Both the position numbers and the translations under genes were made by a program. From the NCBI GenBank assembly GCA_914767715.1, contig OU612071.1, positions 13,685,493 to 13,749,492 on the forward strand: a stretch of 64,000 nt of DNA. The letters run 5' to 3'. This stretch comes from Membranipora membranacea (Eukaryota > Bryozoa > Gymnolaemata > Cheilostomatida > Membraniporidae). Shown piece by piece: positions 6,175-37,500 of this stretch (position 1 is its first letter; each line of letters opens with the position of its first letter). The notes below the pieces were generated by a model. That model was not told the origin of the DNA and searched no databases. It saw nothing but the letters and a program-made list of their open reading frames with translations.

Positions 6175-6597
6175 TATGTCACTCTTCTCTACTCTAGCTA
6201 GTCTTCTCACTCCAATACTCACATTAAATTTTTAGTTAGTCCAATGATCACTCAGTCTCCAGTCACCAATGAAAAAGTCAAGCATTTGAATGATAGAATT
6301 GAACTGCATCTATAGGCTCTAGGTACTCACTGGCAGTAGGGTAGTAAACTTTGATTCCCTCTTCTCTTCTCCTCTGTTTCTTTGGTGCCTGTCTGTTGTC
6401 ACTTGAGACTTATCTTCAAGGTCAGGGCAGCAACAGTTACAATGCTTTAAAGCTAGTCAGACCACCATGACTTGACAACTGTAATTAACTTACTTAGGCT
6501 TGTTAGGACAGGACAATCCGGGGGCCAATAACAGATGGAACTTAATGATCTGATCCCATTAAAACTGCCGTTAAAATTGTATAAATATTTTTTAGTG

Positions 6598-9500
6598 ATG
6601 GCTGCAAACATGGATGTAGATTTGAGTCTTCACTTTACATCTGATCAGCTGAAGTGTATGAGCAGCTATGAGAGAACTAGAAACGAGAATCTCATCAGAA
6701 ATCATGAATTTATGAAATCTATAGGTGAGTGATAGCAAACTGCATGTTTTTCTGTAATAGTCTTTTTATGGCTTTTTAGACCTTGGTCCAACTATACTTG
6801 AACTGTGGTTCAGATGGCTGTTAGGAAATCTAAGTTGTTATACAATAATTTAATGCCAAGCTGACTTAATAATTGCAAAATAGAAAATTTTGAATTCAAT
6901 GAAATTCTCCACCTATCAGTGTATAATATGGTTGTTTTATTTCAGGTTTACCAGTGACAGAGCCCTCATTTCAAAAGAAGTCTTGTCAATCAGAAAAACC
7001 GGCAGCGTCTGGTGGTAAGAGGACCATCAAACTCGTTAAAACTAAAAATCAAACAAAGGATGAAGGCGTTCCAAAAATCACTCCAAAGAAGAGACCTGCC
7101 AGAGGTATAGTAAATTATATATACGGCATGTTGTCCATCTTTCTTTTTCAATGCTGTTTCATTTTTACACTCCATAAACTTTTGATCTAGCTGCTTTTGT
7201 TGAGAAGTATCCTGCCACACTGTCACTATTCATGAGACGGAGGAATAGGTCATTCTGAAAAACTCCTTTATGCTTGTGGACCCTGCTTACAAGGGCTAAC
7301 TTCGAAATGATATTATTCTACCTACAATAGCTGGTTTTCGCTACATCTGAACAGATAACTCGTTTAGTTGATTTTTTACCAGCAATATACATACTCACAT
7401 CATTTAAACTAGAAATTTTATATTTCCAATTGTAGAAAGAAAACAAGTCAAGAGGTTCCAGCCTCCACCAGTCAAACTTCAAATAGAGAAACAGATCGCT
7501 CAGCAATCAGTCAGTGCTAGTAAGGTGAGTACATGTATTTGCATAGTATTGTAACTAAAACTTCAATGATTCTTTTTCCTTGTCAGTAGACTGTAACCCA
7601 CATGAGCCATGCAAGCTAACAAAGAAGTCATCACTGAACAATTTGCTTCCACACTTTCAGTTTGTGACATATTGACACTGATGAACTTTCTCTTAATTTG
7701 AATAATGACTCATAGTTTATGTTGCTCCTTTATCTCCTTGGTTGCAGTCAGCCCGAGACTACATCATTCTTATACAAAAAGGCTTTAAATTTAAATTTTT
7801 CATCGAAATCGTTACAATTACCCTGAGTGTGTAGAATGAATCATTACTTACTATCCATCAGAATGCTACAGGATTCAATGATAGTTTTGAGGAATTCGCT
7901 AACAGAGTACAGTTTGATGGAACCTTAGCTGATGATGATTACGATCCAAAAGACTTTGAGTGGTCCTCGGATGAGAAAGAGTCTGACAAAGAGAATTTCT
8001 CGGAAGAAGAGGCTAAACCTGCTAAGTCTAGGAAGGTTAAAGTAGCAGGTAATATAGAACATGAGATCTTATCTGATTATTATAAATTGTAGCGTTTAGG
8101 TGTCAGGTCAGGTGAATTGGCATGCATAAAAACATACAGTCAGTATTTGCTTGACAGCCCAAAGGAGTTATCTACAATCAGTCACTGAGAAGGCAACTCT
8201 AAATTTGTGTTATCTGTATTCAGTGATTGCTAAAATTCATGGAGTTAAAATTATCTTGATTATCTTAATATTATGGAGCTATAAGAACCAGCAACCTGTT
8301 CAAATGCTGCCGTTGAGAAGACAATTGCATTAGCCAAAGCTTTTTTGTCCATCTGAGAGGATTTGATAATTTATAACTCTGATGCATAAGAGAAAGCTGA
8401 TACGTGATTCTGTATTACTAAGGTTACATTAAGTCTGGCATGCTTCTCTATAGCAGTATTTCTATAGTCGACTCGGATGGCAAAGTTGTCAACCATGACC
8501 CCTGATCTTCACAATCATGACCCATCCCACAATCAAGGGATGCCAATCGCTCACTTTCAATATCATATCTGCAGTCGAGTTCAACTCTTAGCCGATCCTG
8601 CCCGCCCAACTATGACAATTGATCAAAAAAGTTGTACCTAAAATAAAGCAAATACCTTGAATTACCCCTCTCAATATGAAAGGGCATAATGTTATAAAAA
8701 CCAATCCGTTCCAAATACAGTAGGTACAAATCATTTTTGCGTGTTTTAGGTGTGAAGAAAGCAAAGCCCAGACGTTCACCAGTCAGATTTGCACATAATA
8801 ATATAAAGATGCTGTTTGATCATAAGAAGATGTTACCTCGTAGGAAATGTGCTGCTTCTGTTCAGAGCTATAAAGAGGATGATGTCGAGACTGACGACTC
8901 ATTTATTTGTAAGTTGTAATTTTACTAGCTAATTTGTAGTTTTGTAAGTTTGATGTACCAATGATCTCCTAAATACTGTAGCTAAGATGAACTGTAAATA
9001 GTTTGACGCCTTGTTTTTTAGTAGAGTTGTAAAACTGCAGCTGGAAAAAGTATTTTGACCTAGTTTAAGTACTCAGACAGCTCCACTGCGAGTTAGTGTC
9101 ACTTACTCGCATTGCATCTGTCTGAGCACTTAGACTAATTTTGACCAAATCGAAAGCTGTCAGTCTATGTCAGAGACTCCTAAGTTGATGATTTTAATAT
9201 GATAACAGCTAGTTGATATGTTATTCTTTCTCTACCCCAAATATATAAATATATACATATATATGTTTATGGTCTCTACAGTTCAAATGCTAGTCTCTAG
9301 ATTACTCAGTTTCAAAAACTCGAGAGTACAGTGCTACCTTGTCTTAGGCAAAGAAAGGAAAGGAAAGCTAATGACCTTTGCCCAACATTAAATATCCTGA
9401 TATTCAGCCAATCAGAATTCAAAGTTGCTTCAACAACCAAGCTGTGAGGAAAGCCTCATTAACCATGAGAAGCCAACTCATAAATACACAAACAATTTTA

Positions 9501-12500
9501 ATCTAAAAAATCCATTTCTTACGAAATGGTAATTTTCTTACCATCTCTAGATTGTGAGGAGTGTCAGCTGGAGTATGTAGATAATTGTCTTATTCATCCT
9601 CTCATACCTCTGGGTGATTCTCAGGTAATGTGATATTATGTTGAACACACTGTTTACAACAAATGTGTTGTAATACTACTTCTGTAAAATTTGACAAATC
9701 ATTGCCATGGTACTGCAAACCCAAATAGGTTTGTCAGACTTCTCGGCCTATTGGCTAAGATCAAAGTGTCACTGCCAATGGCCGATTAGTGCCAGTTCAG
9801 TTTTGGCAGCTTGCTGCACACTTATGATTAGGAGGTCCTCTATGGCCTCACCTCTAGGATGCATTCTAGTTTTCTAGAATGTATCACATTCCCAGTATGA
9901 GGATTAGGGCATCTTGCGTCCCTCTTTAGGGGCAGCCCAATCTTCTGTTTTTTAGCAAACAGCAAGTTTGTCAGATGGAAAATTGCTACAATATTGGGAT
10001 GGGGATTTCGAATTTGTTTGTATGATAGTCGGCAGTTACAACTTTCTTAATTGAAAAATTGAAGAAATGTGGTGATTTCTGTTTGAGGATGTATTTAGTT
10101 TTTGTTGTAGATTTTCTACTCACTATCTATTTAAATATCACACAATATGTTGTAGGTTTTACTCGGGAAGGAAGACCGAGCTCGTAAAACCCTCCCTACA
10201 GGTCTTTCACTGTCTAAATCTAAGATAAAGGATGCAGGGAAGGGAGTTTGGACTGATATTAAGATTGCTCAGTTTACTAAATTTGGTCCGTATGAGGGAG
10301 TCAAACAACCTGTCAAGGATATAAAGCAGGACCAAGTATCTGGTTATGGCTGGCTGGTAAGTGCTATTCTTCTCCCTTTTCAACACAGTTCTAAATATGG
10401 AAATGAACGCAAAGGTGGAACCAGTCCCTGTGGAATGTTTTTTTTTGTATTTCTGCTGGTTGCAAGCAAAAAATTGAGACTGCCGAACCTATTTCGAGTA
10501 TCCACAAAATGAATCTATAACTATAACGATGCAATGATCAATTTAGCAGTTTAACTGTTGGAAATACAATTTTGATCAACATAGAACAAACTCGGGACAC
10601 GTCCAGGACATATCTATAAATGACACCATGGGAAATTGACTGCAGCAAAATTTGTAGTCGATTTGTCTTTGCATGTTGCAATCTATAGTGTATATTGTCA
10701 CTAAATACTGAAACTGAATAATGAACAACTTTGCTTTGTGTTTTAAAGGTATCAGATAAGTCGGACCCATTCTACATAGATGGTCAGGATGAGAAACAGT
10801 CTAACTGGTTACGTTATGTAAACTGTGCCAGAACTAAACAAGAACAGAACTGTGAAGCGTTTCAATATCGAGGACAGATATACTACAAAGCTCTGAGAGA
10901 AATTGGGATAGGTGGGTGGTCTCATGAATGTTAGTAATGTCAATGATGATGTTTGGGCTTGCACTGTCATTTCCTTGTCATTTTTATCAGAATGTGACAC
11001 TGTTGATCATATCAATTCTTGTTTTCAGGATGGTAGAGAAGAAATTGTCTTCACATACAAGAAGAGGACATAACTCAACCCATATAACTGGAATGAGCAG
11101 CAGCGAACAAACTCAGTTGTCCAACTAGCTTCTTCATCCATGTATAAGACTGTATTGATTCATTTCTTTTTACAGGACATGAGTTACTGGTGTGGTATGG
11201 AGATGATTATGCTGCTGATCTCGGTATCAGCAAAGATAACTTTTCGGCCTCTATTATACCAGGTATGTTTCATCCCAAATTTAGAAATGTGCACATATTA
11301 TTGTATAGGATTCAGTTTGTCATACCGCTGCAAATAATCACTAGCATAAAACACAACTATTATTATTTCCAACTCACTGCTATTTTCCCTTATTACAGCA
11401 AAACCTAAAGAATCAATGGTTCCAGAAGACACTGTGTTCTATGACTGTGAGATCTGCAAGGCAAAGTTTGTCAATAAGTGGACTGCAAAGAGACACATGA
11501 GATGGCATAATCTGAAACAAGGTGAGTACAAGAAAATTTAGCAAAATTCAGTGTATTAGATAGATCATCTTATTCACAAGCATCATCAAAGTTTGCCGAT
11601 AAGAATCTAGCCAGGTCAGTTCTTGTTATATACCTGTACAATTGAAGGACCGCCACTCCTCACCTACTTCTTCATATGTTTTAAAACAATCTTCAGTTGA
11701 GCAGTTATGCTACTCAAATCCTTTAGATTGGAACAGGGATCAGCAGTTTGGGAGATTGTGGTGCACTCATTGCCTGCAGGCTTGGTGGAAACTCAAACAT
11801 TAATACAATGTATGATGGATTATAAATCAATGATGATAGTATACAGGCGGACACAAATGCTCAACAGGTCATAACAAAAAGAATTTGGTGTATTATTATT
11901 TTGAAATGATTCAATTTTATTCATAATATTTTTTCTGTAAAGCCTTTTGTTGCCAGATACTTGGGCAGCTTTGTGTAATCACGTTGTAAATATGTCAATT
12001 TTGTAAACTGAATTATCATCTTTCCAACATTACAGAAGACAAGGAGTCAAAGGCTGTAAAGCCAGCTGATCCACCTCGTCTAATCAAATGTGACAAATGT
12101 GACTTCAGATGTGTCTATCAGAAGGAGCTTATTAAACACAGCAAGTATCACAATGAGAAGTACAAGTATACATGTGAGATATGCGAGGCTAAGTTTACAC
12201 GAGCTGCTCATCTACATACACACATTAGAACTCATACTGGTGAGAAGCCTTATGTATGTACTCAGTGTGAAGCTAGGTTTACACTAGATCAGACTCTACA
12301 GACACACATTAGAACTCATACTGGTGAGAAGCCTTATGCATGTACTCAGTGTGATGCTAGGTTTACAAAGTCTCATAATCTACAGACACACATTAGAACT
12401 CATACTGGTGAGAAGCCTTATGCATGTACTCAGTGTGATGCTAGGTTTACACAGCTTGCTCCTCTACAGACACACATGAGAACTCATACTGGTGAGAAGC

Positions 12501-13099
12501 CTTACGCATGTACTCAGTGTGATGCTAGGTTTACAATTTCTCAGAATCTAAAAACTCACATGAGAACTCATACTGGTGAGAAGCCTTACGCATGTATTCA
12601 GTGTGATGCTAGGTTTACACAGCCTGCTCATCTACAGTGTCACATGCGAACTCATACCGGTGAGAAGCCTTATGCATGTACTCAGTGCGATGCTAGGTTT
12701 ACAAAGTCTCATAATCTACAGACACACATTAGAACTCATACTGGTGAGAAGCCTTATGCATGTACTCAGTGTGATGCTAGGTTTACAAAGTCTCATAATC
12801 TACAGACACACATTAGAACTCATACTGGTGAGAAGCCTTATGCATGTACTCAGTGTGATGCTAGGTTTACACAGCTTGCTCCTCTACAGACACACATGAG
12901 AACTCATACTGGTGAGAAGCCTTACGCATGTACTCAGTGTGATGCTAGGTTTACAATTTCTCAGAATCTAAAAACTCACATGAGAACTCATACTGGTGAG
13001 AAGCCTTACGCATGTACTCAGTGTGATGCTAGGTATACACAAGCTCCTCATCTACAAACACACATGAGGACTCACACTGGTGAGAAGCCATATGCATAA
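6598..13099 (+). CDS. PRDM9: PRDM9/Meisetz-type histone methyltransferase with tandem zinc-finger array
   Basis: Eleven exons: 6598-6724, 6946-7104, 7436-7524, 7862-8048, 8750-8908, 9551-9624, 10156-10356, 10749-10911, 11176-11262, 11399-11521, 12036-13099. All junctions are GT-AG with matching phases; the product is 810 residues. Residues ~5-55 align with the KRAB domain of vertebrate PRDM9 ([33 protein letters not shown]). An acidic stretch, an SSXRD-like basic segment (~190-235) and a CCCH zinc knuckle (C242, C245, C253, H256) follow. The PR/SET domain (~265-405) keeps [19 protein letters not shown] and [11 protein letters not shown]372 and Y394 match the catalytic-pocket tyrosines. A lone C2H2 finger (~427-449) precedes 12 more (~466-808). 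In vertebrates PRDM9 binds DNA with its array, writes H3K4me3/H3K36me3 and places meiotic breaks; the same role here is inference. An in-frame ATG at 6,535 exists, but TTTTTTAG at 6,588-6,595 favours 6,598. The array ends early in a stop. Confidence 0.92.
9063..9140. repeat. Palindromic foldback repeat in PRDM9 intron 5
   Basis: The arms TAAGTACTCAGACAG..GCGAGTTAGTG and CACTTACTCGC..CTGTCTGAGCACTTAG are inverted copies with almost no spacer. A related, more open copy is at 37,229-37,330 with the same GTGCTCAGAC ends, so this is a dispersed foldback/MITE family. Confidence 0.75.
9738..9945 (+). repeat. U2 snRNA-headed SINE-like repeat, copy A
   Basis: Lies in the PRDM9 intron between 9,624 and 10,156, in sense orientation. 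The head CTTCTCGGCCTATTGGCTAA continues with GATCAAAGTGT, which is the U2 snRNA 5' end with one or two changes. The next 170 bases are not U2 but match the minus-strand copy at 1-223 in order and spacing. The boundary at the 3' end is approximate. Confidence 0.8.
12251..13090 (+). repeat. 84-bp zinc-finger minisatellite, ten units
   Basis: Ten head-to-tail 84-bp units starting at 12251, 12335, 12419, 12503, 12587, 12671, 12755, 12839, 12923 and 13007, each one C2H2 finger plus the TGEKP linker. Units 2-4 (12335-12586) and 7-9 (12755-13006) look identical base for base. Helix residues at -1, 2, 3, 6 by unit: LQTT, KHNT, QAPT, IQNT, QAHC, KHNT, KHNT, QAPT, IQNT, QPHT. Outside these positions the units hardly differ. 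This is the pattern of a PRDM9 array under concerted evolution with selection on DNA contacts. Confidence 0.95.
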
Positions 13100-13101
13100 A
13101 T

Positions 13102-13299
13102 ACTCAGTGTGATGCTAGGTTTGCACTAGCTCAAAACCTACAGTCACACATCAGAACTCTCGCTGGTGAGAAGCCTCATGCATGTAGTCATTGCGATGCT
13201 AGGTTTGCAGACTCAAGTAATTTACACAAACACATTAGAAAATCTCACATAATGCAGGGATATTTTCTATCATACAATTATTATAGCGGCTCTGATTAG
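13102..13299 (+). pseudogene. Out-of-frame remnant of two more PRDM9 fingers
   Basis: After the in-frame TAA (13,097-13,099) the repeat pattern resumes two bases out of frame. One finger keeps both cysteines and the first His but reads HIRTL where HIRTH is expected, so it has lost the second His. The next (CSHCDARFADSSNLHKHIRK followed by SH) looks complete. This frame ends at TAG 13,297-13,299. Where other units read GCATGTACTCAG, the sequence here is GCATAAATACTCAG, so a 2-base gain with substitution makes the stop. It could be a fixed truncation, a segregating allele, or an assembly error in a repeat. Confidence 0.8.
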
Positions 13300-13674
13300 T
13301 AAGGTGAACAATTCTTTTTGGTAACTCTTTTTATTCAAATCGACGTTTCAACATGTTTCTACCATCACTGCTCTACACATGTGCTAGTTACATATCCAGA
13401 TTCATTCTTCTGATCCAATTTCGTTCATTAATGATTGTTCTGACCCCCATAACAAGATATACTTGTTGCTCCAATTTCAATGCGCATCCTTGTGCTTGTT
13501 TGGATGGTAGGTTAAGGTTTTTTTAAATTTATAATTGACATTGTTTTTTCTTGTGAAAAATGTTAAGTTTATATATATTTTCATGCTTCGACGTTAAAAA
13601 TTTATAAAAATAAAAGCTGACGCTATATCTCAGGCCTTGTATTTCAATATACCACCCTCATGTTGTGCATATCT

Positions 13675-14199: not shown

Positions 14200-15535
14200 T
14201 GCATGATGTTCCTGTCACTGAACCACCGAAGCTTTGGCATTGTCTACAATATCTAAGGTATTTGAAAAGCTTCTGCTACAGTTTCTCAAACCATGTCTCA
14301 CCGATAATACTCAGTTTGCATATCAGCAGCACCGCTCCACTGAAGATGCACTAGCATCCCTACTAGACATAGTCACAGAACATCTTGACAATAATGCTAA
14401 GAATCATGCGAGATGTCTATTTATAGACTTCTCAAGTGCATTCAATACTATCAGCCCTACCACACTCTGCAACCAGCTGCAAGAAACCAGTCTGAATCCC
14501 GCAATACTCAACCTTGTATATGACTTTATGACAAACCGCTCTCAGAAGGTTCTCACTGAACAGGGCCTCTCATCCGCACTAGCTACCTCTGTCGGAACTC
14601 CACAAGGTTGTGTTATCAGTCCCCTTCTTTTTTCAATATATGTACAGCATATGCCTAAGCCTAGCTCTGGTAACTTTCATCTGATTAAATATGCTGACGA
14701 CACAGTATTGATTGAGCTTTTGTCGAGAAGTGATGTTTCATGTATGGGTAATGCTGCCCAAGATTTGGCTGGTTGGTGTCATGATAATGATCTATTTTTG
14801 AATGTGTCAAAGACAAAGGAGCTTGTATTGTGCAATTTTAGAGACAATCCTGTACATGATAGCTTAGTTATCAATGGTAATAATGTAGAGCAGGTTGACA
14901 GTTTTAAATACTTAGGCACTATTATTGACAAAAAGCTTAAGTTCCAAGAATATTCCATCGAAGTCATCAAGAAAGCCCGCAAGAGACTTTACATCATGAA
15001 GAAGCTGTATTCAATGCATATAGCTGTGCCTCTTAGAATGCAATGCTATACTACTTTTATTGAATGTATATTTTTGTACCACCTTAGCACTCTATATGGC
15101 CACTTATCCTCGTCATCTAGGAAATCGCTCAATAAAGTTATAAGCCTCGCAGGCTATCTAGGTAGCTGCAAGTTTGACACCATCGAGGCAATATACGAAA
15201 GAGTGATGAGAACAAGATGCCTCAGACTCGTAGCTACTGACCACGCTGACCCAGTATTTACATTCGATAAACTTCCGTCTGGTCGATACAGAGCAATCAA
15301 AACGAGGGTAAACATACGAACTGACTGTTTCCGATCCCTCTGTGTGCGGAAGTTAAATAGTATACTTTTTTAGCCAACTAGTGATAATTCTTACTGTTTA
15401 TTTATTTTTTTTTCAATTTTTACAACCAACCAGACCAAAACTTTTTAATGTTTACACCATAACTTTTATTGCTCAGCGAAAACAAAATATTTCTCAAACA
15501 TGAGACTGTAATAAACGATGAATGAATGAATTGCA
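14200..15535 (+). mobile_element. 5'-truncated non-LTR retrotransposon (LINE)
   Basis: Contains a reverse transcriptase frame with no upstream endonuclease. The 3' end is a short untranslated tail finishing in GATGAATGAATGAAT, a short tandem tail of the kind found on CR1/L2-like LINEs instead of a poly(A). The 5' edge is approximate. No target duplication was recognised. Confidence 0.75.
14234..15373 (+). CDS. LINE reverse transcriptase (partial, 5' truncated)
   Basis: The open frame of about 379 residues starts at a TTG, so its start is artificial and reflects truncation. Reverse-transcriptase blocks appear in order: SKVFEKLLL and QFAYQQHRSTEDAL (fingers), FIDFSSAFNTI (motif A, first catalytic Asp), GTPQGCVISPLLFSIY (motif B), KYADDTVLI (motif C with the catalytic Asp pair) and FKYLGTIID (motif D/E region). 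A C-terminal segment DKLPSGRYRAIKTR and a CFRSLCVRKLN stretch follow, then TAG. A second, diverged copy of this end is at 42,301-42,427. The catalytic core is uninterrupted, so the insertion is probably not old. Without the endonuclease it cannot move by itself. The clade is not certain; it is in the CR1/Rex/L2 range. Confidence 0.88.
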   Translation: MALSTISKVFEKLLLQFLKPCLTDNTQFAYQQHRSTEDALASLLDIVTEHLDNNAKNHARCLFIDFSSAFNTISPTTLCNQLQETSLNPAILNLVYDFMTNRSQKVLTEQGLSSALATSVGTPQGCVISPLLFSIYVQHMPKPSSGNFHLIKYADDTVLIELLSRSDVSCMGNAAQDLAGWCHDNDLFLNVSKTKELVLCNFRDNPVHDSLVINGNNVEQVDSFKYLGTIIDKKLKFQEYSIEVIKKARKRLYIMKKLYSMHIAVPLRMQCYTTFIECIFLYHLSTLYGHLSSSSRKSLNKVISLAGYLGSCKFDTIEAIYERVMRTRCLRLVATDHADPVFTFDKLPSGRYRAIKTRVNIRTDCFRSLCVRKLNSILF

Positions 15536-16853: not shown

Positions 16854-19800
16854 TTAATAAGAGTACCGTGATTCTAACATGCTGTCTTCCCCGAACACAA
16901 GCTTAAAACGCATGACAGATCTTTCCTCTTCAGTGAAAACAGCGAAGTTATCCTGGTTTGAGCAAATACCGCCTTCATCGCTACAATAATCTAGCATCTC
17001 ATGTGAGAAACTGGCCAAATGTTTACCTAAAAGAAAGAATATAACATGTTAGCAAAATGTAAGAAACATCTTTGAGGACAGAGAAATGACAAGTTATAAA
17101 CTGAAAGTGGAGTTATTTTCACTCCTAGTTGGGATGAGAAGGTACTAAAAAGGTACTATTTTCATGATTGTGTATATTGTGTCATCTCAAATTTGAGTGA
17201 AAATTAGTTGAAACTTGGCCACAGGCCAATTAAGAAATTAGAGCAGTATTCTAAATTAGACTGAGAACTCTAGAATGAAACAAAGAACCTGATTCTGTCA
17301 CACTCACACTCTTATTGACCATGTGGGATTGAAATGTGAGGACTGGCTTCTATGTATCATGAATTCGTTTGATAAATTGGCAGACCCTGTGAACTAGCTC
17401 AAGAGTGACAAGTTTATTACCCAGATCTGATAGTCAATTGCCTCAACTTGACCAATGACCTTCCTTGACCTAGAGGTAACTTGAATCAATCTTACAGATT
17501 TGCTCTGAGAAGCGAGACTACTTCACCATAGCAACAAGGCTACAAAGGGACACAATTGAGCTACAATGTAAGCTGGTTAATTCAAGCTTTAGAACTAAAA
17601 ACTCCTGTAAATTCAGACAAGGAAAATTGGTCCCTTCAGCCGTATCTCTATGCATTCTAATGTCACTTAATTCAGACTCTGCTTAATTAGAACAAGTTAT
17701 TGTGGTACCCAGAGGTTTGAATTAAGTGAACTGCACTATATTTATACGTTTTCTTTTGGAAGCTGACACTTTCCGAATGAGGGTGAGGTGACTTCTCAGT
17801 CTTGGAACTTAAGCATATCTGGTTTAGCTCCGCTGCTAAACTGTAAAGATAAACCACCACCAACCTGACAACCTGATCCAATTGCTTGCTCATGCTCAAA
17901 AGTAACTTTATCTGGTACCTGATGAACCCCGTATGCTCAGTCTAGCTGGTCCCTGATAAGGTTTGGAAAGGATCAGCATACCATCCTTCCATCGACACAC
18001 TCCATCGATATTCTTCGTTTTGATTACTGTATCTTCTTGGAGACTTTCACCAGTCAGATGGACGAGTTGACAGCCACCTTTAGTGATCCAATAATTGTTC
18101 TCGGACATGACATGTGGATAGGCGCTTAGCATAGCTCCACGGAACATTGATTTGGTACGTTGGCGATAGTTTTGGATGGCATCATGGTCAGTAGTTATTG
18201 TTTTGATACCGGTTTCCATATTATAACAAAGAACATTGTTACCAAATGTCACCAGACAAACATCAGCTGAGACCGAAATCGCAGGAAGTAAATACCTAGT
18301 TATAGGGCAAATATACTCAAATTGTAATATCACAGTTTTGTCTGGTGTGCCCTTTGAAGCAGCTTCTAGGAAGTTTTGGATGCACAATACAAAATGAGCT
18401 GGTACTGTCGTAACTTTGTTTGTCTCAATGAGGTAAAGATCATCACCATACAGAGAAATTCCGGTAATCATATTATCATCCTTGGTCCTATAGACTTTAA
18501 CCCATCCTTTCATATCAACTGTCTGAAGCAAAAGTCCTTTACCACAACAGCATATGATTCTACCGTCACTGGTCATAGAAATGCTCTCGGCAGACCAGCC
18601 TTCATCAAGGTCTACCACCGATTCAGATATGAACTGCACCCCTTCAACGCTCAGAGCATCATTCAAGTTCTGAAAAGCCAATAAAGTCCTGAGACTGGAA
18701 AACTATACAGAGAAGATATCATTCACTAAACCTATGTTCAATACAGGTTCAGTTACTGGCAGCAGCAGTCATTCCTAAATTAGGCATTGACACATCATAC
18801 ATCCTAGCCAGATACTTGCGAATTAGGAATATAATTACCAGAGGTCCACTGTGTGTTTCATTGGTTCAGGTAACCTTAGCCAATGTATTTTCTCTGATTG
18901 GTCATCGGATGGGTGGGTTGTCTCCCAACCATCAGCCAATAATAGCTGACATATTAGCTAATGTTGTGACTGTGTAGAGTGTAAAATGACCTACCTTGCA
19001 GGAATTTAAGTCGTCGGAAATTGACAGTTAATGTTGACCCACAACTCAGACTTTCCAACATGGATCTATTGTTCTCGACTATCTTTGTAACATGGCTGTC
19101 TCTCAAGAACTTCTCACATGTGGCCATCTTTGTTTCAAGTTGTTCTCTGGCACTTCTTAATTTCTCCATGTCTATCTCAGCCTTGACCTTTGCAGTCCGT
19201 TCAAAGCGTGCTATCCTCTCCTTAAAGTTCAGCTCCAGAGATTTGACAAGCGCAGTCTGAAAATATGTTGGGAAAATTAGTGCTGATCCTTGTTAAACTT
19301 CTTGATGCAATTGATTGATTTTTATATTTCATTCAGTGTCATGACTGGTAAAATCGAGCGCTCACATAAAAATGAAAAACTCATCATCAAAATGACTTAG
19401 TATATGTATATATGCTTTTGTTGGCAACCACAGTCATCTCATTGGAAATGTTTTGTACTCGGTAAGAAAGTTCTAAAAATAGGCCATGAAAAAATGAAAA
19501 ATATGTAAGACATTTCTTCATCTAAAATGAGTGCCGTTTCAAAGGGAAACTGCTAAAATTTCTTTTACACAGTTAAAAAGTCATGCTCATGAGCTATCTT
19601 AGTAAAATCAACTTGACGTACTGCTTAAACGAGCCAGCATTATAACATAAAAGCTGATAGACCAATTTGTCAATTAAACGATGCTGAATGATGATACTAT
19701 TCACTCACCAGCTCTTCAGCCTTTTTCTCGACCTGAATGGTCAGTGTTCTACAATCTTCCTCTATATCGTCTAGTTTTAGCCAGGCTTGCTTCTCCTCTA

Positions 19801-22800
19801 CACAAAGCTCAGCTACTTTCTTTGAAAGTTGTTTTATGGCATCAGAGAACTTTGATTTTATCTGAGTCTCCACGTCCTTCAATGTCTTGAATACATGAGA
19901 GTTTTCCCGAGAGTTCTCCTCAGAGTTTTCCCAAGAGTTTTCCTCTGTACTGTTTTCTACAAACAGTATAGAGCATTTTAAAAGGCTACATAAATTCAAA
20001 TGATATATAATATCAGGTGTGTAGCATTTCAAATGAAATACGCCCCATGATAGTCAACAGTTTGAAGGTAGTGATAGTAGATCAATCCTGAAATAATACT
20101 AAACGTTCCCCAATTTAGTGGGCACTAGATGGAAATATTCCCTCTAGACAAAATATTGTTTTCCACATGTGAATTAAAATGGGTGTTTTGGGCATTATCT
20201 TCTTGGCAACTGTTATCCAACACTCAGCCTTGATAACCACTTACCTTGACAATCATTCTCTGTTGGGCATTTGTGACACTTGATGACATAGCAGTTCTTA
20301 CAGCACACAGTTAGAATATCATTGTGTTCCTTACAGAGAGGCTTCACATATAAGTCGGGTTTCTCACAGAACTTCTGCATCGATATGATCTTGTGCTTGT
20401 CCCCACCATCAAATATTTCATTATGCCACTGAAAATCAACAGTAAATGATAAGCATACATTAGCTCCGTACACTAAATAACATGTATGATTAGCATATAG
20501 GAGAGGAATACATCTCGGGTTGCTGGGGGCTTAAACAATCAATCTTGAAAGCTCCCCCAGTGGGAGTCAAACCCACAACTCCTGCGGTACTAATAGCCTG
20601 GGAGTGATTAGCAAGCGCGCTAACCGATTGCGCCATCTCACCATCCACTCATGATCGCATCAGCATATATACATATATAGCATGGTCACAATGAGAAACA
20701 TGAACTTCCAACAATTTGTTTGAAACAAACAGTGCATGATATTGTGGGCCTAGCTTTGGCTTTGAATTGCTAGTCGCTCATGACTTAACGACAAGTTTTG
20801 AAATTATGGTATAATTAGTTTTGTAATAATACGGAGCATTTTCTTTGTACTTCGGAGTTGTCTTATGAATATCAATGAAAGGACAACTCTCATTATAACA
20901 AATTAATTTTCCATCTGTTTTCGACAATAAAATTTGACGGTTATCAGGGCTCTAAAACAACAATTTTGCGCACTATTTTCATCTCTGGGTACATATTTAG
21001 ATTGAGCATTCACATAAACGCTTTCGAAATCTTGCAGTCTTGAAGCTGTTTCATTAAGATTAAGGCAGTTTTAAATGCAAATGCGAATAGTTTGACATGG
21101 TTGCTCTTGAACTTCAGCCATATCTGTTCCCAAATTTTCACCGATAAGGATTAAAATTCTGTCCGGTAGTGATATATTGGGGAACAAGACCTTGTGCACG
21201 TATCGATCTCTCCCAGCGAGAGTCGAGCAGAGAATCTCTTGGACCATTATGTATATTCAAATCCAGACACATACCCGTTCATGATGTGAGCAGAGCTTTT
21301 TATCGCAGTTGATACAGTAACAGACAGACAAGACCACTTCCTGTTTACATGCCGCACATCTCTGTTCTGATTGGTTAACAGAGTCTGTAGCTTCGGCGCT
21401 AAAAACATTCAGTTTTTGAAAATATTGATAACACAGAATCTACAACACAGCCATCTTGATATTTGAAATACAAACAATTGATTTATGGTAAATCCACCGA
21501 ACAGCAGAAAAACAATAGAGTTCATATCAACTTCCTCTCACTGGCCGAGGTACGTTCTTTTCCCTTGAGGGTGGAGAGAGAGGAGAGGGACAAAACTTCC
21601 AAATAGGTAAGATGATAATGAGGCCAACTCCAGAAAGTATTGATCAATCTCACCGGGATATGTCTGAACAAAAAGCCTGGCAATGTTGTCATCATTAACC
21701 ATTCATCATCAAAAAAGTATCATTTACTCTCAATACACCAGAATTACCCTACAGAGATATAAAGTATTTGCAGGAGCAAAACTTTGCTATATTGCACAGG
21801 CTTGGTATAGCTAAGTTTATGGCTAACAACATCGATGCTTTTTATGAGCTAGAACCCCAGCCAGTGAAAATTATGTGCTAATATCAAGTCATTCCAAAAC
21901 TAGCTAATAGCTTATAGTTACTCCTATAGGGTACAACAACATCAATTGGAATAAATTCACAGGTAGCTTGTCTTGTTTTGTGAACACCAATATGAACGGA
22001 TAGATCCCACTGATCACGTGATATACTATCGCAAGTATATCTCTAATCGATAGAGAGTGAATTAATTCACTTAGCATGAGTACCATCACAAGGATATTGG
22101 TGTGACGACCTGTGTTTGATTGTATTATTTAGGAGTGGGTATATGTTAGGTACTCGCACTAAATCGTTTCTAACGGTCAGAGATACACATGTTAATAGTG
22201 TAATCTCGATGTCAGTGTGTGGATAGATTGTAACATAACTATACCTGTTTATAATGGGGTTACTGAGTTTGACACGCTTAGCATCAGGTTCTGCGTCTGT
22301 AGATAAATCTGTTATCTGTACATCAGGTAAGGAATTCACCATGTCTACCTCATGTTCCACGCTAAGATCCACACAATAACCGTAGTTAAATGAGATAGGA
22401 ACAGTTTGTTTGGTAGCAGAATGAAATTCTGTTGCCGTAACTTAATTAGCCTAATCCTACTCTTGCCATCAATGTAATAAAGGTAGTAAAACAAGTGGGT
22501 GACGCCAGGCAGGGGGGGGGGGCTCAGACTAGGGGAAAAAAGCACTGAAGTTGTCTTGTAGTTAATATGGTAGGACAAAAGTGTGAAATATTCTGTTAGT
22601 TTATTTTTATCTGTGAAAATGAGTGATTATATTGTGTTTGTTTTGAGCAGCACATTTACTCTCACAAGCAAATTGAATAAAAAGCTCTCCCTCAACCTAA
22701 CTATGCAGAGCAAAGGATATTTGAGTATACCTTGACTTAATTGCATATAGATCTGATGCATACTGCTATAAACAAAGGAATATCCCCTTTGTTACGAAAC

Positions 22801-24826: not shown

Positions 24827-26153
24827 TGTAGAGGATTTTGAGGGGGTTACCCTAAGGCGGCGATACCCGCCACTGCAACCACGCCCATTGCCTATTTCTA
24901 CTGAGTACGCCGACTCTCTAAAGCGAGTACGCCGACTCTATCTGCCTGGAATATACCGAGTACGACGACTCTAACTGGGGGGGGGGGGTGACGAGTACGA
25001 CGACTCTAACTCAGGGGGGGGGGGTGACGAGTACGACGACTCTAACTGAGGGGGGGTGACGAGTACGACGACTCTAACTGAGGGGGGAGTGACGAGTACG
25101 ACGACTCTAACTGAGGGGGGGGTGACGAGTACGACGACTCTAACTGAGGGGGGGGTGACGAGTACGACGACTCTAACTGAGGGGGGGGGGGTAACAAGTA
25201 AGGCGACTCTATCTGGGCTGGGAATATAATTGACCTGACTTTGGGGCTGGCTTTGGGGGTGGGGGGGGGAATATGTGGACAAAGATAGTAGGCTTATTTA
25301 TCTGGCAAGATTAATTTGGGAGGGAAGGGATATGGACAAACTATTAACATATTTATCAGGCAAAATAAATTGGGGAGGGAAGGGATATGGACAAACTATT
25401 AACATTTTTTATTGGGCAATATAAATTCGGGTAGGAAGGGATATAGATAATATGATTACTACTTATTTGTCGGGCGAGACAAAAGGAAGCAAATGGGCCA
25501 GGGGAAGAGGGTTGGACAATATAATCAATGGGAAGGGGAATAGATAAATAAATAACCAAATGGGACTGGAACTGGACTAGATTGAACTGGACTGGAACTG
25601 GACTGGCAATCAGGTCAATGGATGCAGTGGTGCAATGGGGGGTTTTCACTTGGCCTCTACCTACTACCCAAGGGAGGCTACAGTCTAACAACAGAGTACA
25701 AACAAGGCAACATCATGTCAAGGCAGGGAGGTCTGCCAGCAGGCAGAACTCAAGAAACTTACTTGAATAGGTTGTGTTCAGTAAGGCACTTTATTTGTTG
25801 CTGACTGGTTTAAAAATAAAAGGTCTTATTACCTCAGCTGCTGGATATTAACTGACTAGACTCAACTCATGTACAGTGATTAAAAGCATAATGTAATATG
25901 ATACTGGCTGATGCAACAGCAGGAAACAGGGAACATTCTGGATGGGTGTGTAAGAGTTAAAATCAGTAATTAAAAGCATTATTATAATACTGGCTGATGA
26001 AATATTTTAGATGGATTGTTATAGTTAAATTCAGTTATTAAAAGCATATTATTATTAAAATTAGAAAAGTTATAAAAGTGATGAAAGGGGAAGACAACTC
26101 ATGATTCATGAATTTATTTTTGAATGTTCAGCTGTGGAGGAAAATCCACCACA
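24827..26153 (-). repeat. LTR (3' LTR in element orientation)
   Basis: 1,327 bp. It includes a minisatellite of about seven units with G-tracts (24,957-25,195) and purine-rich GGGAGGGAAGGGATATGG repeats at 25,317-25,445. The open frames inside (such as 25,356-25,691) recur unchanged in the other LTR and are not genes. Confidence 0.9.
24957..25195 (+). repeat. G-tract minisatellite in the LTR
   Basis: About seven units of GTGACGAGTACGACGACTCT plus AACTGAG followed by 5-10 Gs. Four or more long G-runs on one strand could form G-quadruplexes between runs, and the other strand is matching C-rich. The run lengths differ between the two LTRs. The homologous block is at 28,038-28,272. Confidence 0.9.
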
Positions 26154-27902
26154 CTCTCCCTTCTAACTTTTCTTATTTTCATCGTCTTTGTCTTGTATCT
26201 GTGGGTATTGTCCTTCTAACTGTCGTAAGGTGTCCTCTGCCATTTTACGCTATCGTTCTGTATGTACATAGAGCTGTCTGGGGGTCAGGGGGTACGGGCG
26301 GTATTGGGTTTTGGACAGGCAATCAGCAGTACGGGAAGTGGTAGGGGCTTTGGGAAGGTCTATGAATGGGACAGGGAAACTGGGGGTGAGCACATAGAGA
26401 TAATTAGTGCCTAACAGGGGACAATAATGCTGATTTTAACTTGGCTTCTTGCAGCCAGGGTGGGTAACAGGGAGTATGGTAATGGAGTGTTGGTATATTT
26501 ATATTCCGGCTAAACACATCAGTGTATTGGGACAGGATTTCAGCGTCGGGGATCTGTCTAGGGGGTCAGAGAGTACGGGCGGTATGGGGTTTTGGACAGG
26601 CAATCAGCAGTACGGGCGGTGGTAGGGGCTCTGGGAAGGGCTATGAATGGGACAGGGAAGTGGAGGCAAGCACATTGAGATAAATGGGGGCCTGACAGGT
26701 GACAATAATGCTGATTTTAACTTTGCCTCTTGCAGACAGGGTTTTTGTATATTTTCATTCCGGCAAAACGCATCTGCGAATTGGGACAGGATTTTAGGGT
26801 CTTGGAGCTAATCACTTGGGCTTTGACAAACTCCACGACCTCATTGTATAAGGGTTGGACAAGTGTGAGCTTGTGGGCAGTAGGGGATGTTGGAGTTAGA
26901 CACCGCCTACATGTTTGGATCAGGCTGTTAGTGTCTTGGATCTTCACGCTTTGGCTTAGGCAAACTCCTTAGGCTTTATTGTATAAGGGCTGGACATGTG
27001 AGGGGATTGTGGGTAGCATGATGGACTGGAGTTGGACAACTCCTACTTGTTTTGTTCCAGGATGTGGTATAGGTAAGGTTTTAAGGTCAAGGACTGGACT
27101 GGACAAGGACTGGACAAGGACTGGGCAAGGACTGTACAAGGACTGGAACGGTGAAGGGTTGGGAGTGGCCAAATAATGGTAACGGTTTCATGAGTCAAAT
27201 TATACATCTCACTAGACCTGGATATGTTGGGGGGGGGGGGGGGGGGGGGGTTTAGAGAATGACATTTCTGGTCTCAATTCCTACATTCATCAGACTGAAA
27301 ATTTAGTGAATATCGGGGAGCTGTGAAGTCTCCCTTCCAGCATAAGCTCATCCTGTTTATGAAGCAAACTAGCCTGAGGGGTCTTACTTTATTCGGGGGG
27401 TTGGGCTTGGTCAATCAGGTTCTTAACATTTGGGGAGGGAGGGATGGCTGAATAGGGATAGTGGGGTTTTGCTGGATAGGGATAGTGGGGTGTGGCGGAC
27501 TAGGGCAGCTTCTGTTGTAATTTTTGTGACAGGGGGTGGGCTTCCATTTTCCACTTCTTATTTATTCAATCTGGGCCTGTTGCGTTGTTTGACCAAAACT
27601 GACCGAGTCCAACTGAGATTTTATCACCAGTTGATCCTCTTCCAATTTCAGCAGCGCTCCCTTCCAGCATGGAGCGTAGTTATCAGAGAGAAGCTTGGTT
27701 GGCCATGGTACATGGGGCTTTGTACCAGTTACTTGGATACGGATTATCAATAAGTGGCTCACCCTGAAGGGCAACGAGTCTGTCGACGGCCTTGTCGACC
27801 CCTGCGACCTGTTGGCTCCCTCCCCCACCTTTAACACAGTTGCCATGTACCCTGTTTTGTTAGACTGCGCGTTTCCCCAGCAGATCCCACTGCTGCCACC
27901 AT
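26154..27902 (-). other. Interior of the LTR element, non-coding
   Basis: No long domain-bearing frame. A segment containing AGTACGGG(C/A).GGTAGGGGCT, with a GGTTTTGGACAGGCAATCAG core, occurs twice (about 26,280-26,480 and 26,568-26,760), so part is a tandem duplication of about 290 bp. Short units of GGACTGGACAA occur at 27,089-27,155, and a G-run of about 20 lies at 27,230-27,250. Confidence 0.7.
27883..27901 (-). other. Primer binding site of the LTR element
   Basis: Minus-strand TGGTGGCAGCAGTGGGATC, two bases inside the LTR. It starts with TGG, complementary to the CCA end of a tRNA, and its continuation resembles PBSs of the TGGTGTCAGAAGTGGGAT class attributed to tRNA-Leu. The tRNA identity is inferred. 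Confidence 0.7.
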
Positions 27903-29235
27903 TGTAGAGGATTTTGAGGGGGTTACCCTAAGGCGGCGATACCCGCCACTGCAACCACGCCCATTGCCTATTTCTACTGAGTACGCCGACTCTCTAAAGC
28001 GAGTACGCCGACTCTATCTGCCTGGAATATACCGAGTACGACGACTCTAACTGGGGGGGGGGGGGGGTGACGAGTACGACGACTCTAACTCAGGGGGGGG
28101 GGGGTGACGAGTACGACGACTCTAACTGAGGGGGGGGTGACGAGTACGACGACTCTAACTGAGGGGGGAGTGACGAGTACGACGACTCTAACTGAGGGGG
28201 GGGTGACGAGTACGACGACTCTAACTGAGGGGGGGGGTGACGAGTACGACGACTCTAACTGAGGGGGGGGGGTAACAAGTAAGGCAACTCTATCTGGGCT
28301 GGGAATATAATTGACCTGACTTTGGGGCTGGCTTTGGGGGTGGGGGGGGGGAATATGTGGACAAAGATAGTAGGCTTATTTATCTGGCAAGATTAATTTG
28401 GGAGGGAAGGGATATGGACAAACTATTAACATATTTATCAGGCAAAATAAATTGGGGAGGGAAGGGATATGGACAAACTATTAACATTTTTTATTGGGCA
28501 ATATAAATTCGGGTAGGAAGGGATATAGATAATATGATTACTACTTATTTGTCGGGCGAGACAAAAGGAAGCAAATGGGCCAGGGGAAGAGGGTTGGACA
28601 ATATAATCAATGGGAAGGGGAATAGATAAATAAATAACCAAATGGGACTGGAACTGGACTAGATTGAACTGGACTGGAACTGGACTGGCAATCAGGTCAA
28701 TGGATGCAGTGGTGCAATGGGGGGTTTTCACTTGGCCTCTACCTACTACCCAAGGGAGGCTACAGTCTAACAACAGAGTACAAACAAGGCAACATTATGT
28801 CAAGGCAGGGAGGTCTGCCAGCAGGCAGAACTCAAGAAACTTACTTGAATAGGTTGTGTTCAGTAAGGCACTTTATTTGTTGCTGACTGGTTTAAAAATA
28901 AAAGGTCTTATTACCTCAGCTGCTGGATATTAACTGACTAGACTCAACTCATGTACAGTGATTAAAAGCATAATGTAATATGATACTGGCTGATGCAACA
29001 GCAGGAAACAGGGAACATTCTGGATGGGTGTGTAAGAGTTAAAATCAGTAATTAAAAGCATTATTATAATACTGGCTGATGAAATATTTTAGATGGATTG
29101 TTATAGTTAAATTCAGTTATTAAAAGCATATTATTATTAAAATTAGAAAAGTTATAAAAGTGATGAAAGGGGAAGACAACTCATGATTCATGAATTTATT
29201 TTTGAATGTTCAGCTGTGGAGGAAAATCCACCACA
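27903..29235 (-). repeat. LTR (5' LTR in element orientation)
   Basis: 1,333 bp, aligning with 24,827-26,153 almost throughout. Differences seen: G-tract lengths, GGCAACTC versus GGCGACTC, and CATTATGTC versus CATCATGTC. Confidence 0.9.
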
Positions 29236-29879
29236 CTGGGTAGGAAATAATGTGCTGGGCAGCATTAGCTTTGTGCATTACGCGATGCAAAACTCAAAGT
29301 AGTTGCTGACTCTAAGCTGGGTAACACTTCAGTTTAGGGGTGGTTCCAAGACTTTGCTGTAATAATTATAGAGCACAGGCTAAATAATAACAGGAACAGG
29401 AAACTGCTATGTGGTATTCTCTTTTAGCTGAGTTTGAGTGCCTGATGGAAGAAATGTTTCACAAGAATTCTGGCTGAATAATCATCCGAATTATATTTTG
29501 TCTTTTTCCCCATGCAGAAGGTGCAATCTGCTATTAATCAATGGCCATCAATGAGAAGTTGTTTGAAACCTTGGTTGCCCTTTAAATGACTCTGACTATG
29601 CTACCTTTGTCCAATGCTGATTTTTGATCATTTCTAGTGTAAGTAGAGTACAACAATAAAAATATACATAATAACACAAATCTTCAACTCATGAGTGTGA
29701 TAGCATCAATAATTTTTAAAAAAATGACGAATCCTTCTATGCTGGTATCCTTCTCATAGTCCAGTGTACATAATGACTTACATGCTCTAAAATTTTCAGT
29801 CTCTATTCTCTGGTTTTCAAAAGTCTATTTTTGTTATGATGTAGTGAAGTGAATGCTGGACATGATCCCACATTGTTAT

Positions 29880-34587: not shown

Positions 34588-37500
34588 ATGGTCATACAGA
34601 AGAGAGCATGGATATCTGTCTACGCGCTGTTTACTGTATGGCTTTTGAGGGTAAGTTGTACCTTCAGCAAGGAGACGACTTTCAATTATAATTTGTCCTT
34701 CGATCTGAATTTGAGATAACAAGACAAAATGGAGTCCTCTTCCCTATGGTGGTGGAAAGCGACCTGATATTGTTCACTATTATCTCTCCTACTAACAGTA
34801 AACAATTTTAAAAAAGATTTGATGTTGATTTGGTTGCAGTAATAACAGGATACGCTCATAATACTCAAATCTAATTACAAATTACATAACAATTTAGAAA
34901 GGTGAACTTCACATTTTGGTTATTTTCTTTTAGGGATTGAACACAGTGCCGCCCTAGATTGATGTATGCTCGTTTCTGTTCAATTGCTGCTGTGTTACCG
35001 GTGATAAATATCATTGCTGATGCTGATGCTGACATGTTCCCAGCATGCCACAGTTGTAATATATTATTTAGCAATCATATATTATTTTTACAGGAAGTTC
35101 TAGCCATTGTGATGCCTGATGGTACGCATTTCATAAAAGTGAACTACTGCATCCAGTCGAGCAGCTTGATAAAGTCACTGAAAGTAAAGAAACTATTTTC
35201 ATGTGCTGTCGAATGCTCGTCAACAGCAGAGTGTAGAGCGTTCAGTTACTCGTCCTCAAACAAAACCTGCCAACTCAGCAGTGATGTCGGTACGGATGAC
35301 TGCTGCGCTGATGTGGGAGATGTATATATCGCTCGTAAGTGCTTACTCCACAAGGCTGCAGTTTAGGAAAAATGGTAGGGGAAGCGAAAATCATAGAGAG
35401 TGTGAAATAACACCAGGTTAGGTATTGTGAGCTCCTTCTGAGTCCCTGGTCCCCAGCGTCCGAAGCGTTTCGATGATATAAATAGCAAATGGAAGTTCCA
35501 AATGAGCTGATTGTGACATGGAATATTTGATTATAGCATTTTAGGTCACTCTAGGAGAGGCAGAGCGTGCCTGCCTCCCCTTGAACTACTGGTTTTGCTC
35601 CACTCGCTTCAGACCAGAGCTTGATTCACCTTTGATTCTAGTCAACTTGTAGAGCAATCTAAGTAAATATTATTTTATGTCTAGTCATAGGGAGTTAACG
35701 TGATATATCGCTTTTTAAAACTTTTTAATATTGTATTGGTGATCATGTCTAATAGTTATTTTCACAGTTGAAACCTCCCAAATATTTGACGTTGAGTCGC
35801 AGTGACCTCTGGAAGTATATTTTAGGGCAAAAAGTCCCCTTTTTAAACTGAGCCCTCTAGCCTCTGTGCCTTGTTTTTTGAGATATTTGATTAGTTTATG
35901 CTTTCACCATATAGAGGAGGCATGGCACTGACTGCAGGAGTGAAATTTTAGTGAAACTTTACGATTTAAGGCCTCCTATCTTTGAGACTTGAAATTGATT
36001 TTTGCAATAGTAATAGGGCCATTTCTGACCCCTCATTACATGCGACCCCAATAATGCAGAAACTAAAATTTCCAATTTATTACACCATTTTGGTCTTGTA
36101 CTGTCACTTTCATCAATAATCTTACCAGCTGACAGATCCTGGTTGTCACAACTGTATCAGATAAAAGCCCAAATTTCAATTAATTAGGTCAACATTTTCC
36201 AGCCAAAATTCAGAAAGATGTCAGTCAAATTTGTTGGCAGCATGATGAGCAGCAGGAGATTGTCTAGGTTTTGATGGAAGCAATTGTTGATTATGGTTTT
36301 ACATCTTGAGATATTTGGATTTCTGTGGCTAAACCAGCTTTACTTGGTTCAAAACATGCACTCCTCTCCAGCCAAAAAGCTGAAAATATGTTACAGAACA
36401 TGTTATACACATTAGCTTCCATTAAACTAGAGAGTATTTTGGTTTTGTTTTGTTTTGTCAGTGGCGTTTGATGACAAATTTAATGGTTGAGAAGTTTTGA
36501 GCATAAACATTTCACGTTCGATGCTAAACAATCACCCAAAAAAGGTGATCCATTGTTGTACACAATTTGCTTTGCATGTAACACTGCATAGATTTTCATC
36601 ACGCTCTTGCATAACGTAATTTACTTATCAAGTTAAAAACATGCGGTGTAAAAAAGTTTGCAATATGAAACATAAGCCAGACTACTGGCAATGTGTCAGG
36701 GAAGGAATTTTTGAGTTGGGACAAGTAGTTCCTGAGAAACTGAACAGGCGATATATCACGTTAAATTGCAATTTGACTCATTAAAATTTCTATACCTCTT
36801 GAACGTTGCAATTTTCTAAAACCATTGTGTGGTTAAAATGCATTCACAAGAATCTTCCTATCATTTTTAGAAGATGTGATTTCTAATGGTTGCGATGACC
36901 TTGAAACAAGTGGAGTAACTGATATTATAATCAATTTATCCCACACTGTGACGGTAAGTGTCTGAGTTTGAAGCCTTCACCTTCACCTTCAGTGCAGCAT
37001 TATATGCATCATTCAAGTCAGGGTTTCGCTGTGACTTATAGAGTGGACTTGCCTATTCCTCATCGGTAATTTCATTGTTTAGTAGTATTTCATTGGTCAA
37101 CTGTAATATTACAACATCGAACATGGGAAGAAAACTCTCCAAAAATGTCAGAAAATTGTCAATATTGCTAAAGTTTGCCTAAGAATCATAAATATAAACT
37201 CACGGCATCATCTCATGACCATGTATAGTCATGTGCTCAGACGGCTGCAATGCGAGTTAGTGGCAGCCGAAATTGAGTGTTTCATAATGTAATGCCACTT
37301 ACTTCATTTCAACCCTCTGAGCACTTAGAATAGACTGTGTAGGAAGAGACTTTACTCAATCTACTTGTACTAGTGTACGACCAATACTTGATTCTGCTCT
37401 TGCCTGACATGATATAGAGAAAACATCATCCAGGATGAAAATATTCATTAGATAAAATTTTTTTCCATACTTACCAAACTGAACTTCGCTGAGTACTAAG

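What the first reader, a model, noticed from the sequence alone, without database searches (positions are those of the whole stretch)
6598..13099. Full-length PRDM9/Meisetz gene with KRAB-like, SSXRD-like, PR/SET and long finger array in an invertebrate
Seen: eleven exons in frame, ordered as in vertebrate PRDM9, including the rarely kept N-terminal KRAB-like part ([22 protein letters not shown]) and the CCCH knuckle. Known: PRDM9 places meiotic recombination hotspots in mammals, has been lost many times, and Meisetz-like genes with KRAB-related sequence have been reported outside vertebrates. Inference: this species may specify hotspots by PRDM9, which would make it a useful system outside vertebrates.
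Basis: partly seen in the sequence, partly recalled or inferred. Interest (0 to 1): 0.93.

Follow-up and report, generated by a model that had tools for sequence, protein, structure and literature searches.

The report
Full-length PRDM9 gene in a bryozoan
A moss animal (bryozoan) appears to carry an intact, nearly complete version of PRDM9, the gene that decides where chromosomes recombine in mammals; such genes are already known from molluscs, corals and sponges, so this is a good new example of a known gene rather than a new kind of thing.

Summary
Eleven GT-AG exons (6598-13099, + strand) join into one 810-residue frame: ancestral-KRAB-like motif, doubtful SSXRD-like stretch, CCCH knuckle, PR/SET with the three PRDM9 active-site tyrosines, two separate C2H2 fingers and 11 tandem ones. 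The N-terminal 415 residues match solved PRDM9 (151 bits) well above PRDM11 (100), PRDM14 (76) and the ten other listed chains (about 66 or less). The closest protein is from the bryozoan Watersipora subatra (67% identity over knuckle plus PR/SET; 50% or less for the other 11 of the 12 best printed), so the window is probably bryozoan DNA. A KRAB profile made only from vertebrate PRDM9s scores the N-terminus at 38.4 bits, best of 1000 shuffles 7.7, although Pfam's KRAB and SSXRD models do not fire. The array carries a 302-bp exact internal duplication, and its variation is concentrated in the DNA-reading helices, but only moderately (0.37-0.43; 42nd of 51 arrays). Whether it sets recombination hotspots is untested. 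Full-length PRDM9 outside vertebrates is in print; a bryozoan one I did not find. New member of a known kind.

The parts
6598..6724 (+). Exon 1: start codon and first part of the KRAB-like motif (residues 1-43)
   Evidence: Splice model; vertebrate-only KRAB profile 38.4 bits vs best of 1000 shuffles 7.7. An acceptor-like tract ends just before the ATG, so an upstream non-coding exon is possible (by eye).
6946..7104 (+). Exon 2: end of KRAB-like motif (to residue about 54) and basic linker
   Evidence: profile alignment residues 8-54
7436..7524 (+). Exon 3: linker with RKxxxRFQPPxxxLQ
   Evidence: aligns with Watersipora P0113 RKRAQRFQPPATNLQ (no tblastn hit at 1e-3)
7862..8048 (+). Exon 4: acidic linker
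   Evidence: aligned with P0113, weakly
8750..8908 (+). Exon 5: SSXRD-like stretch (LPRRKC..Y.EDD)
   Evidence: Watersipora P0001 tblastn E 1.7e-5; anchored shuffle test 10 of 2000; unanchored search negative
9551..9624 (+). Exon 6: CCCH knuckle [16 protein letters not shown]
   Evidence: Aligned to the knuckle of PRDM9 chains 4c1q and 6nm4
10156..10356 (+). Exon 7: first part of PR/SET (PR from about 10207), includes Y329 (SGYGWL)
   Evidence: tblastn Watersipora 72% identity
10749..10911 (+). Exon 8: [15 protein letters not shown] and Y378 (QIYYK)
   Evidence: tblastn Watersipora 67%
11176..11262 (+). Exon 9: end of PR/SET (to about 11228), Y394 (LVWYGD)
11399..11521 (+). Exon 10: single C2H2 finger (11446-11508) before the array
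   Evidence: no clear Watersipora counterpart
12036..13099 (+). Exon 11: one irregular finger (12089-12151) and 11 tandem 84-bp C2H2 fingers (12167-13090), TAA stop
   Evidence: TRF 84-bp period, 12.1 copies 12188-13206
12295..12596 (+). First copy of a 302-bp exact internal repeat (fingers 3-5 identical to 8-10)
   Evidence: fingers 3-5 vs 8-10, 0 of 252 mismatches; longest exact repeat 302 bp, offset 420 bp = 5 units
12715..13016 (+). Second copy of the 302-bp exact repeat
13102..13239 (+). Two further finger remnants beyond the stop, in a shifted frame
   Evidence: frame TQCDARFALAQNLQSH...; tblastn hits of Watersipora fingers at 13045-13239

Best explanation
An intact PRDM9-type gene (pro-orthologue of vertebrate PRDM9/7 and PRDM11) of a bryozoan. 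Shown by sequence: KRAB-like N-terminus, knuckle plus PR/SET with the active-site tyrosines, long C2H2 array with recent internal duplication. Inferred: in meiotic germ cells the array binds its DNA motif, the PR/SET domain puts H3K4me3 and H3K36me3 on nearby nucleosomes, and the KRAB-like part links the site to the break machinery, so that crossovers gather at these motifs. Identity as a PRDM9-type gene about 0.95; hotspot role about 0.5.
For: Open frame over 11 exons; solved PRDM9 is the best match by 51 bits over PRDM11; three active-site tyrosines and the knuckle residues aligned; nearest protein bryozoan, 100/100; KRAB-like motif by vertebrate-only profile; array: between fingers, nucleotide identity 92% in backbone codons and 70% in helix positions -2 to 6, pN/pS 1.5 in the helix and 0.33 in the backbone; diversity at -1,2,3,6 is reached by only 39 of all 7315 sets of four non-zinc codons; 302-bp exact duplication. 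From papers: oyster Prdm9 and Zcwpw2 are high in male gonad (PMC12111275, passages); KRAB plus SET, without SSXRD, is the definition of complete in Cavassim et al. (PMC8892340, passages).
Against: No expression, splice or recombination data. Pfam KRAB and SSXRD not detected at E up to 10. SSXRD only weak. Position 6 of the fingers is T in 10 of 11, while position 1, not counted as a contact, varies strongly. The diversity share (0.372 on 12 fingers, 0.429 on 11, 0.387 on the 7 distinct ones) is low: 0.372 is 42nd of 51 arrays by my own statistic, and 0.429 would be 34th; it is at the low end of 0.331-1.0 printed for complete vertebrate orthologues. pN/pS at the four contact positions alone is 1.2. 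The reading frame ends before the last two fingers.
Confidence: 0.55

Rival explanations
1. A working PRDM9-type histone methyltransferase with another job (gene regulation in germ line or embryo), not setting hotspots, like the partial PRDM9 genes of many fish.
For: SSXRD doubtful; moderate diversity share, 41 of the 50 other arrays higher; Mulinia prdm9 is high in blastula (PMC10451705, passages).
Against: KRAB-like part kept, which partial fish genes usually lack; recent exact duplication in the array; helix codons more variable than backbone; share above every SET-only row in the table of Baker et al. (at most 0.331), though by a slightly different calculation.
Confidence: 0.36
2. A decaying copy: the last two fingers are cut off by a frameshift and the gene is no longer used; another copy does the work.
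For: Frameshift and stop inside the array with two fingers beyond; Watersipora has at least two related models, P0001 and P0113, listed with the same 77-Mb contig length.
Against: No stop or broken splice site in the 456 codons before exon 11 nor in the 11 fingers; catalytic and zinc residues kept. That PRDM9 arrays shorten and lengthen often is general knowledge.
Confidence: 0.07
3. A gene of another PRDM class (PRDM11, 14, 12, 1).
For: Deep forks of the PR/SET tree are weak (56/47 between the two sides of the drawn root; cnidarian and sponge PRDM9-like rows fall loosely with PRDM14/12/1).
Against: Bits 151 PRDM9, 100 PRDM11, 76 PRDM14, about 66 or less for the others; knuckle; KRAB-like part; PRDM11 itself nests among vertebrate PRDM9 rows.
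Confidence: 0.02

Closest known systems
Watersipora subatra 'gastrula zinc finger protein XlCGF57.1-like' (P0001, P0113)
   Same: Knuckle and PR/SET (P0001: 67% identity over 168 residues), LPRRKC stretch (P0001), RKxxxRFQPP stretch (P0113), long tandem array
   Different: The annotated models lack the KRAB-like start; P0113 lacks the exon 7 part of PR/SET and the LPRRKC stretch; different fingers
Molluscan PRDM9-like (Argopecten, Solemya, Pecten, Liolophura, Haliotis)
   Same: KRAB-like N-terminus, SSXRD-like stretch, knuckle, PR/SET, fingers; Pfam KRAB is not listed for these five either
   Different: KRAB-like part closer to vertebrates (51-62 bits against 38 for the window on the vertebrate profile)
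Vertebrate PRDM9 (human, mouse, other mammals, coelacanth)
   Same: Order of parts, tyrosines, knuckle, finger array
   Different: Pfam KRAB and SSXRD are listed for many mammalian rows, not found here; mammals vary at finger positions -1, 3 and 6 (PMC2779102, passages), here 6 hardly varies
Oculina (coral, P0062) and Ephydatia (sponge, P0056) PRDM9-like
   Same: KRAB-like start (24 and 12 bits; the sponge value is barely above the shuffles), knuckle, PR/SET
   Different: About 30% identity overall; the retrieved models show few fingers

Membership tests
PRDM9 | PR/SET domain closest to PRDM9 among PRDM classes | tested here: met
   (15 distinct chains), tree of 44 rows: window with Watersipora 100/100, apart from PRDM1/12/14 at 90/87, deeper forks weak; PRDM2, 4, 5, 10, 16 and MECOM compared by score only
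PRDM9 | Three active-site tyrosines (human Y276, Y341, Y357; numbers recalled) | tested here: met
   Alignment to 4c1q and 6nm4: Y329, Y378, Y394 of the joined protein
PRDM9 | CCCH knuckle before PR/SET (shared with PRDM11) | tested here: met
   alignments
PRDM9 | KRAB-like (aKRAB) N-terminus | tested here: met
   Vertebrate-only profile 38.4 bits, best of 1000 shuffles 7.7; Pfam PF01352 not detected
PRDM9 | SSXRD motif | tested here: inconclusive
   Pfam PF09514 not detected; unanchored profiles negative, but the vertebrate one also scores some molluscs near the shuffles; anchored test 10 of 2000 shuffles
PRDM9 | Long C2H2 array in one terminal exon with concerted evolution | tested here: met
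   11 tandem 84-bp fingers, 302-bp exact duplication
PRDM9 | Excess diversity at finger positions -1, 3, 6 | tested here: inconclusive
   -1 and 3 diverse, 6 nearly fixed; share at -1,2,3,6 0.37-0.43, 42nd of 51
PRDM9 | Meiotic germline expression and hotspot placement | not testable with these tools
   No reads or recombination maps at hand
PRDM11 | Knuckle plus PR closest to PRDM11, no C2H2 array (the latter recalled) | tested here: not met
   51 bits below PRDM9; array present

The most novel reading that the evidence does not exclude
A bryozoan places its crossovers by PRDM9 binding, which would carry PRDM9-directed recombination from bony vertebrates back to the common ancestor of protostomes and deuterostomes, here with a degenerate SSXRD and a finger code in which positions -1 to 3 but not 6 evolve.
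Probability: 0.42. Interest if true: 0.8.

Novelty: new member of a known kind. Interest (0 to 1): 0.42.

Why it matters
Whether PRDM9 directs recombination outside vertebrates is open (the review PMC13186367, passages seen, calls it still unknown whether the function has been kept since the animal ancestor, and traces it to Euteleostomi). A complete, recently reshuffled copy in what is probably a bryozoan adds a phylum in which the question can be asked, with a concrete array to test. It also shows that automatic annotation (Watersipora 'gastrula zinc finger protein') can hide such genes.

Tried and rejected
A sponge origin was my first guess, made before any search; dropped when Watersipora scored 303 bits and Ephydatia 169. 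Other PRDM classes disfavoured by score and tree. Other PRDM copies in the window: tblastn of four proteins, 69 hits, none outside 6500-13400. Related loci: in genome contigs and in viral contigs 2 stretches each matched a pattern, none confirmed by tblastn. Species from a neighbouring gene: 408 candidates, none with E <= 0.001. The bacterial-type promoter and terminator scan after the stop says nothing about an animal gene. No structure prediction was run: by its description the tool takes proteins read letter for letter from the DNA, and this one is spliced.

Paper searches (open-licence PMC only): PRDM9 with sponge, coral, Amphimedon, bryozoa, KRAB/invertebrate/SSXRD, mollusc, cnidarian, bivalve. 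PRDM9 plus bryozoa gave one paper, unrelated by title.

Full report
What is there. Eleven exons on the + strand from 6598 to 13099 join through ten GT-AG introns into 2433 bp, 810 residues and a stop. Pfam finds PR (PF21549, E 4.1e-38), SET (1.5e-9) and 13 C2H2 stretches, but neither KRAB nor SSXRD at E up to 10 in 2 of 2 queries. Against solved structures the N-terminal 415 residues match PRDM9 at 151, 143 and 142 bits, PRDM11 at 100, PRDM14 at 76 and the other ten listed chains at about 66 or less. The alignment keeps the CCCH knuckle and the tyrosines in SGYGWL, QIYYK and LVWYGD (that these are the catalytic ones in human PRDM9 is recalled).

Whose gene it is. The first protein search (143 hits, 120 listed) puts Watersipora subatra P0001 first at 61% identity and 303 bits; next in bits is a fish protein, P0002, 298 bits at 39% identity, in which two PR copies can be seen. 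In the second search (126 hits, 120 listed) a partial deer protein, P0121, comes first in bits (310 at 45% identity) and Watersipora second (302 at 63%); P0121 was not looked at further. By one BLASTP alignment of knuckle plus PR/SET among the 153 proteins, P0001 has 247 bits and 67% identity; the other 11 of the 12 printed have 157-168 bits and 45-50%. In a tree of 44 rows (37 of the 153 proteins, chosen by me, six solved chains, the window) the window pairs with Watersipora at 100/100 and lies apart from the eight PRDM1/12/14 rows (90/87); deeper forks are weak, the bootstrap had not settled, and coral and sponge rows fall loosely on the other side. PRDM11, a long branch, falls among the vertebrate PRDM9 rows, in line with Baker et al., who derive PRDM11 from PRDM9 (PMC5519329, passages). 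The window's species is thus probably a bryozoan; it is not named here.

The N-terminus. A profile from 12 vertebrate PRDM9 KRAB regions gives the window 38.4 bits, five molluscs 51-62, a coral 24, a sponge 12, and the best of 1000 shuffles 7.7; three further unnamed full-length relatives (P0107-P0109) do not rise above the shuffles on it. With molluscs added the window has 50 bits, over residues 8-54. The SSXRD-like stretch LPRRKC..Y.EDD is shared with Watersipora. A profile search for it without anchor fails: on the vertebrate and on the molluscan profile the window lies among the shuffles, and on the joint one it is not reported; the vertebrate profile is itself weak, scoring some molluscs near the shuffles. 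With the knuckle fixed, 0 of 2000 shuffles of 28 residues score as high, but part of that comes from the acidic end; with 20 residues shuffled it is 10 of 2000, and 2 of 2000 for Watersipora. I call SSXRD unproven. Cavassim et al. leave SSXRD out of their definition because its short length makes detection unreliable (PMC8892340, passages).

Support for the exons. By tblastn at 1e-3, Watersipora proteins hit exons 5, 6, 7, 8, 9 and 11; exons 3 and 4 are matched only in a MAFFT alignment, exon 3 by RKxxxRFQPPxxxLQ; exon 10 has no clear counterpart. P0113 lacks exactly the residues of exon 7 that P0001 has, which fits the two borders.

The array. Eleven tandem 84-bp fingers, 7 distinct in protein. 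Between fingers, nucleotide identity is 92% in backbone codons and 70% in helix codons -2 to 6; pN/pS is 1.5 in the helix, 1.2 at -1,2,3,6 alone and 0.33 in the backbone. Fingers 3-5 equal fingers 8-10 in 252 of 252 bases, within a 302-bp exact repeat five units apart: recent unequal exchange or, less likely, an assembly effect. Against a strong PRDM9 signature: position 6 is T in 10 of 11; the share of diversity at -1,2,3,6 is 0.43 (11 fingers), 0.37 (12) or 0.39 (7 distinct); and 41 of the 50 other arrays of four or more fingers, found among 120 proteins, score higher than 0.372. Only 39 of all 7315 sets of four non-zinc codons reach the share seen at -1,2,3,6. Baker et al. print 0.331-1.0 for complete orthologues and at most 0.331 for SET-only ones (section 10, part 1 of 2), so the value is at the low end of the former; my calculation is not identical to theirs. 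After the stop two more fingers follow in another frame.

What is known. Oliver et al. report concerted evolution of Prdm9 fingers in Nematostella, Lottia and Capitella, with positive selection at -1, 3 and 6 in Nematostella and at one codon in Capitella (PMC2779102, passages). A 2026 review says full-length homologues occur in cnidarians and sponges and that it is unknown whether the function has been kept (PMC13186367, passages). KRAB-A models with the central helix reach from bivalves to humans (PMC8835667, passages). Oyster Prdm9 and Zcwpw2 are high in male gonad (PMC12111275, passages); Mulinia prdm9 is high in blastula (PMC10451705, passages). Loss of aKRAB is suggested to have changed PRDM9 function in teleosts (PMC11600626, passages). 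PMC11577847 (passages) mentions PRDM9 as a speciation gene. I found no paper on PRDM9 in bryozoans in the open-licence library; most subscription journals are not in it.

Verdict. A real, apparently intact PRDM9-type gene with its parts in order, SSXRD doubtful; a new phylum record at most, of a known kind. Hotspot function is a fair inference that the sequence cannot settle.

Noticed in passing
17914-18702 (-), 48717-49421 (+), 57882-58694 (+), 61773-62585 (-): Four related open frames, 58-67% identical to each other, with coiled-coil and B-box-like pieces near by (e.g. 20219-20530 -, 57339-57671 +; by eye, no Pfam match): TRIM-like. The one copy searched had no relative at E <= 0.001 in the large protein search; Pfam gave 0 families for three copies and one below-cut-off match for the fourth. 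Perhaps a lineage-specific multigene family.
   Followed up: partly
24827-26155 and 27903-29237: About 1.3 kb direct duplication, 99.25% identical, in the most G+C-rich part of the window, holding 33-bp and 55-bp tandem repeats.
   Followed up: partly
14222-15373: Open reverse transcriptase frame (RVT_1, E 7.7e-28) just downstream of the gene, same strand; probably a LINE-type element.
   Followed up: partly
Watersipora P0113: Annotated as a gastrula zinc finger protein; the model lacks the exon 7 part of the PR/SET domain and the LPRRKC stretch, so its methyltransferase domain is incomplete in the annotation.
   Followed up: partly
34941-35363 (+): Open frame with a PAN domain (PF00024, E 4.4e-7).
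   Followed up: no
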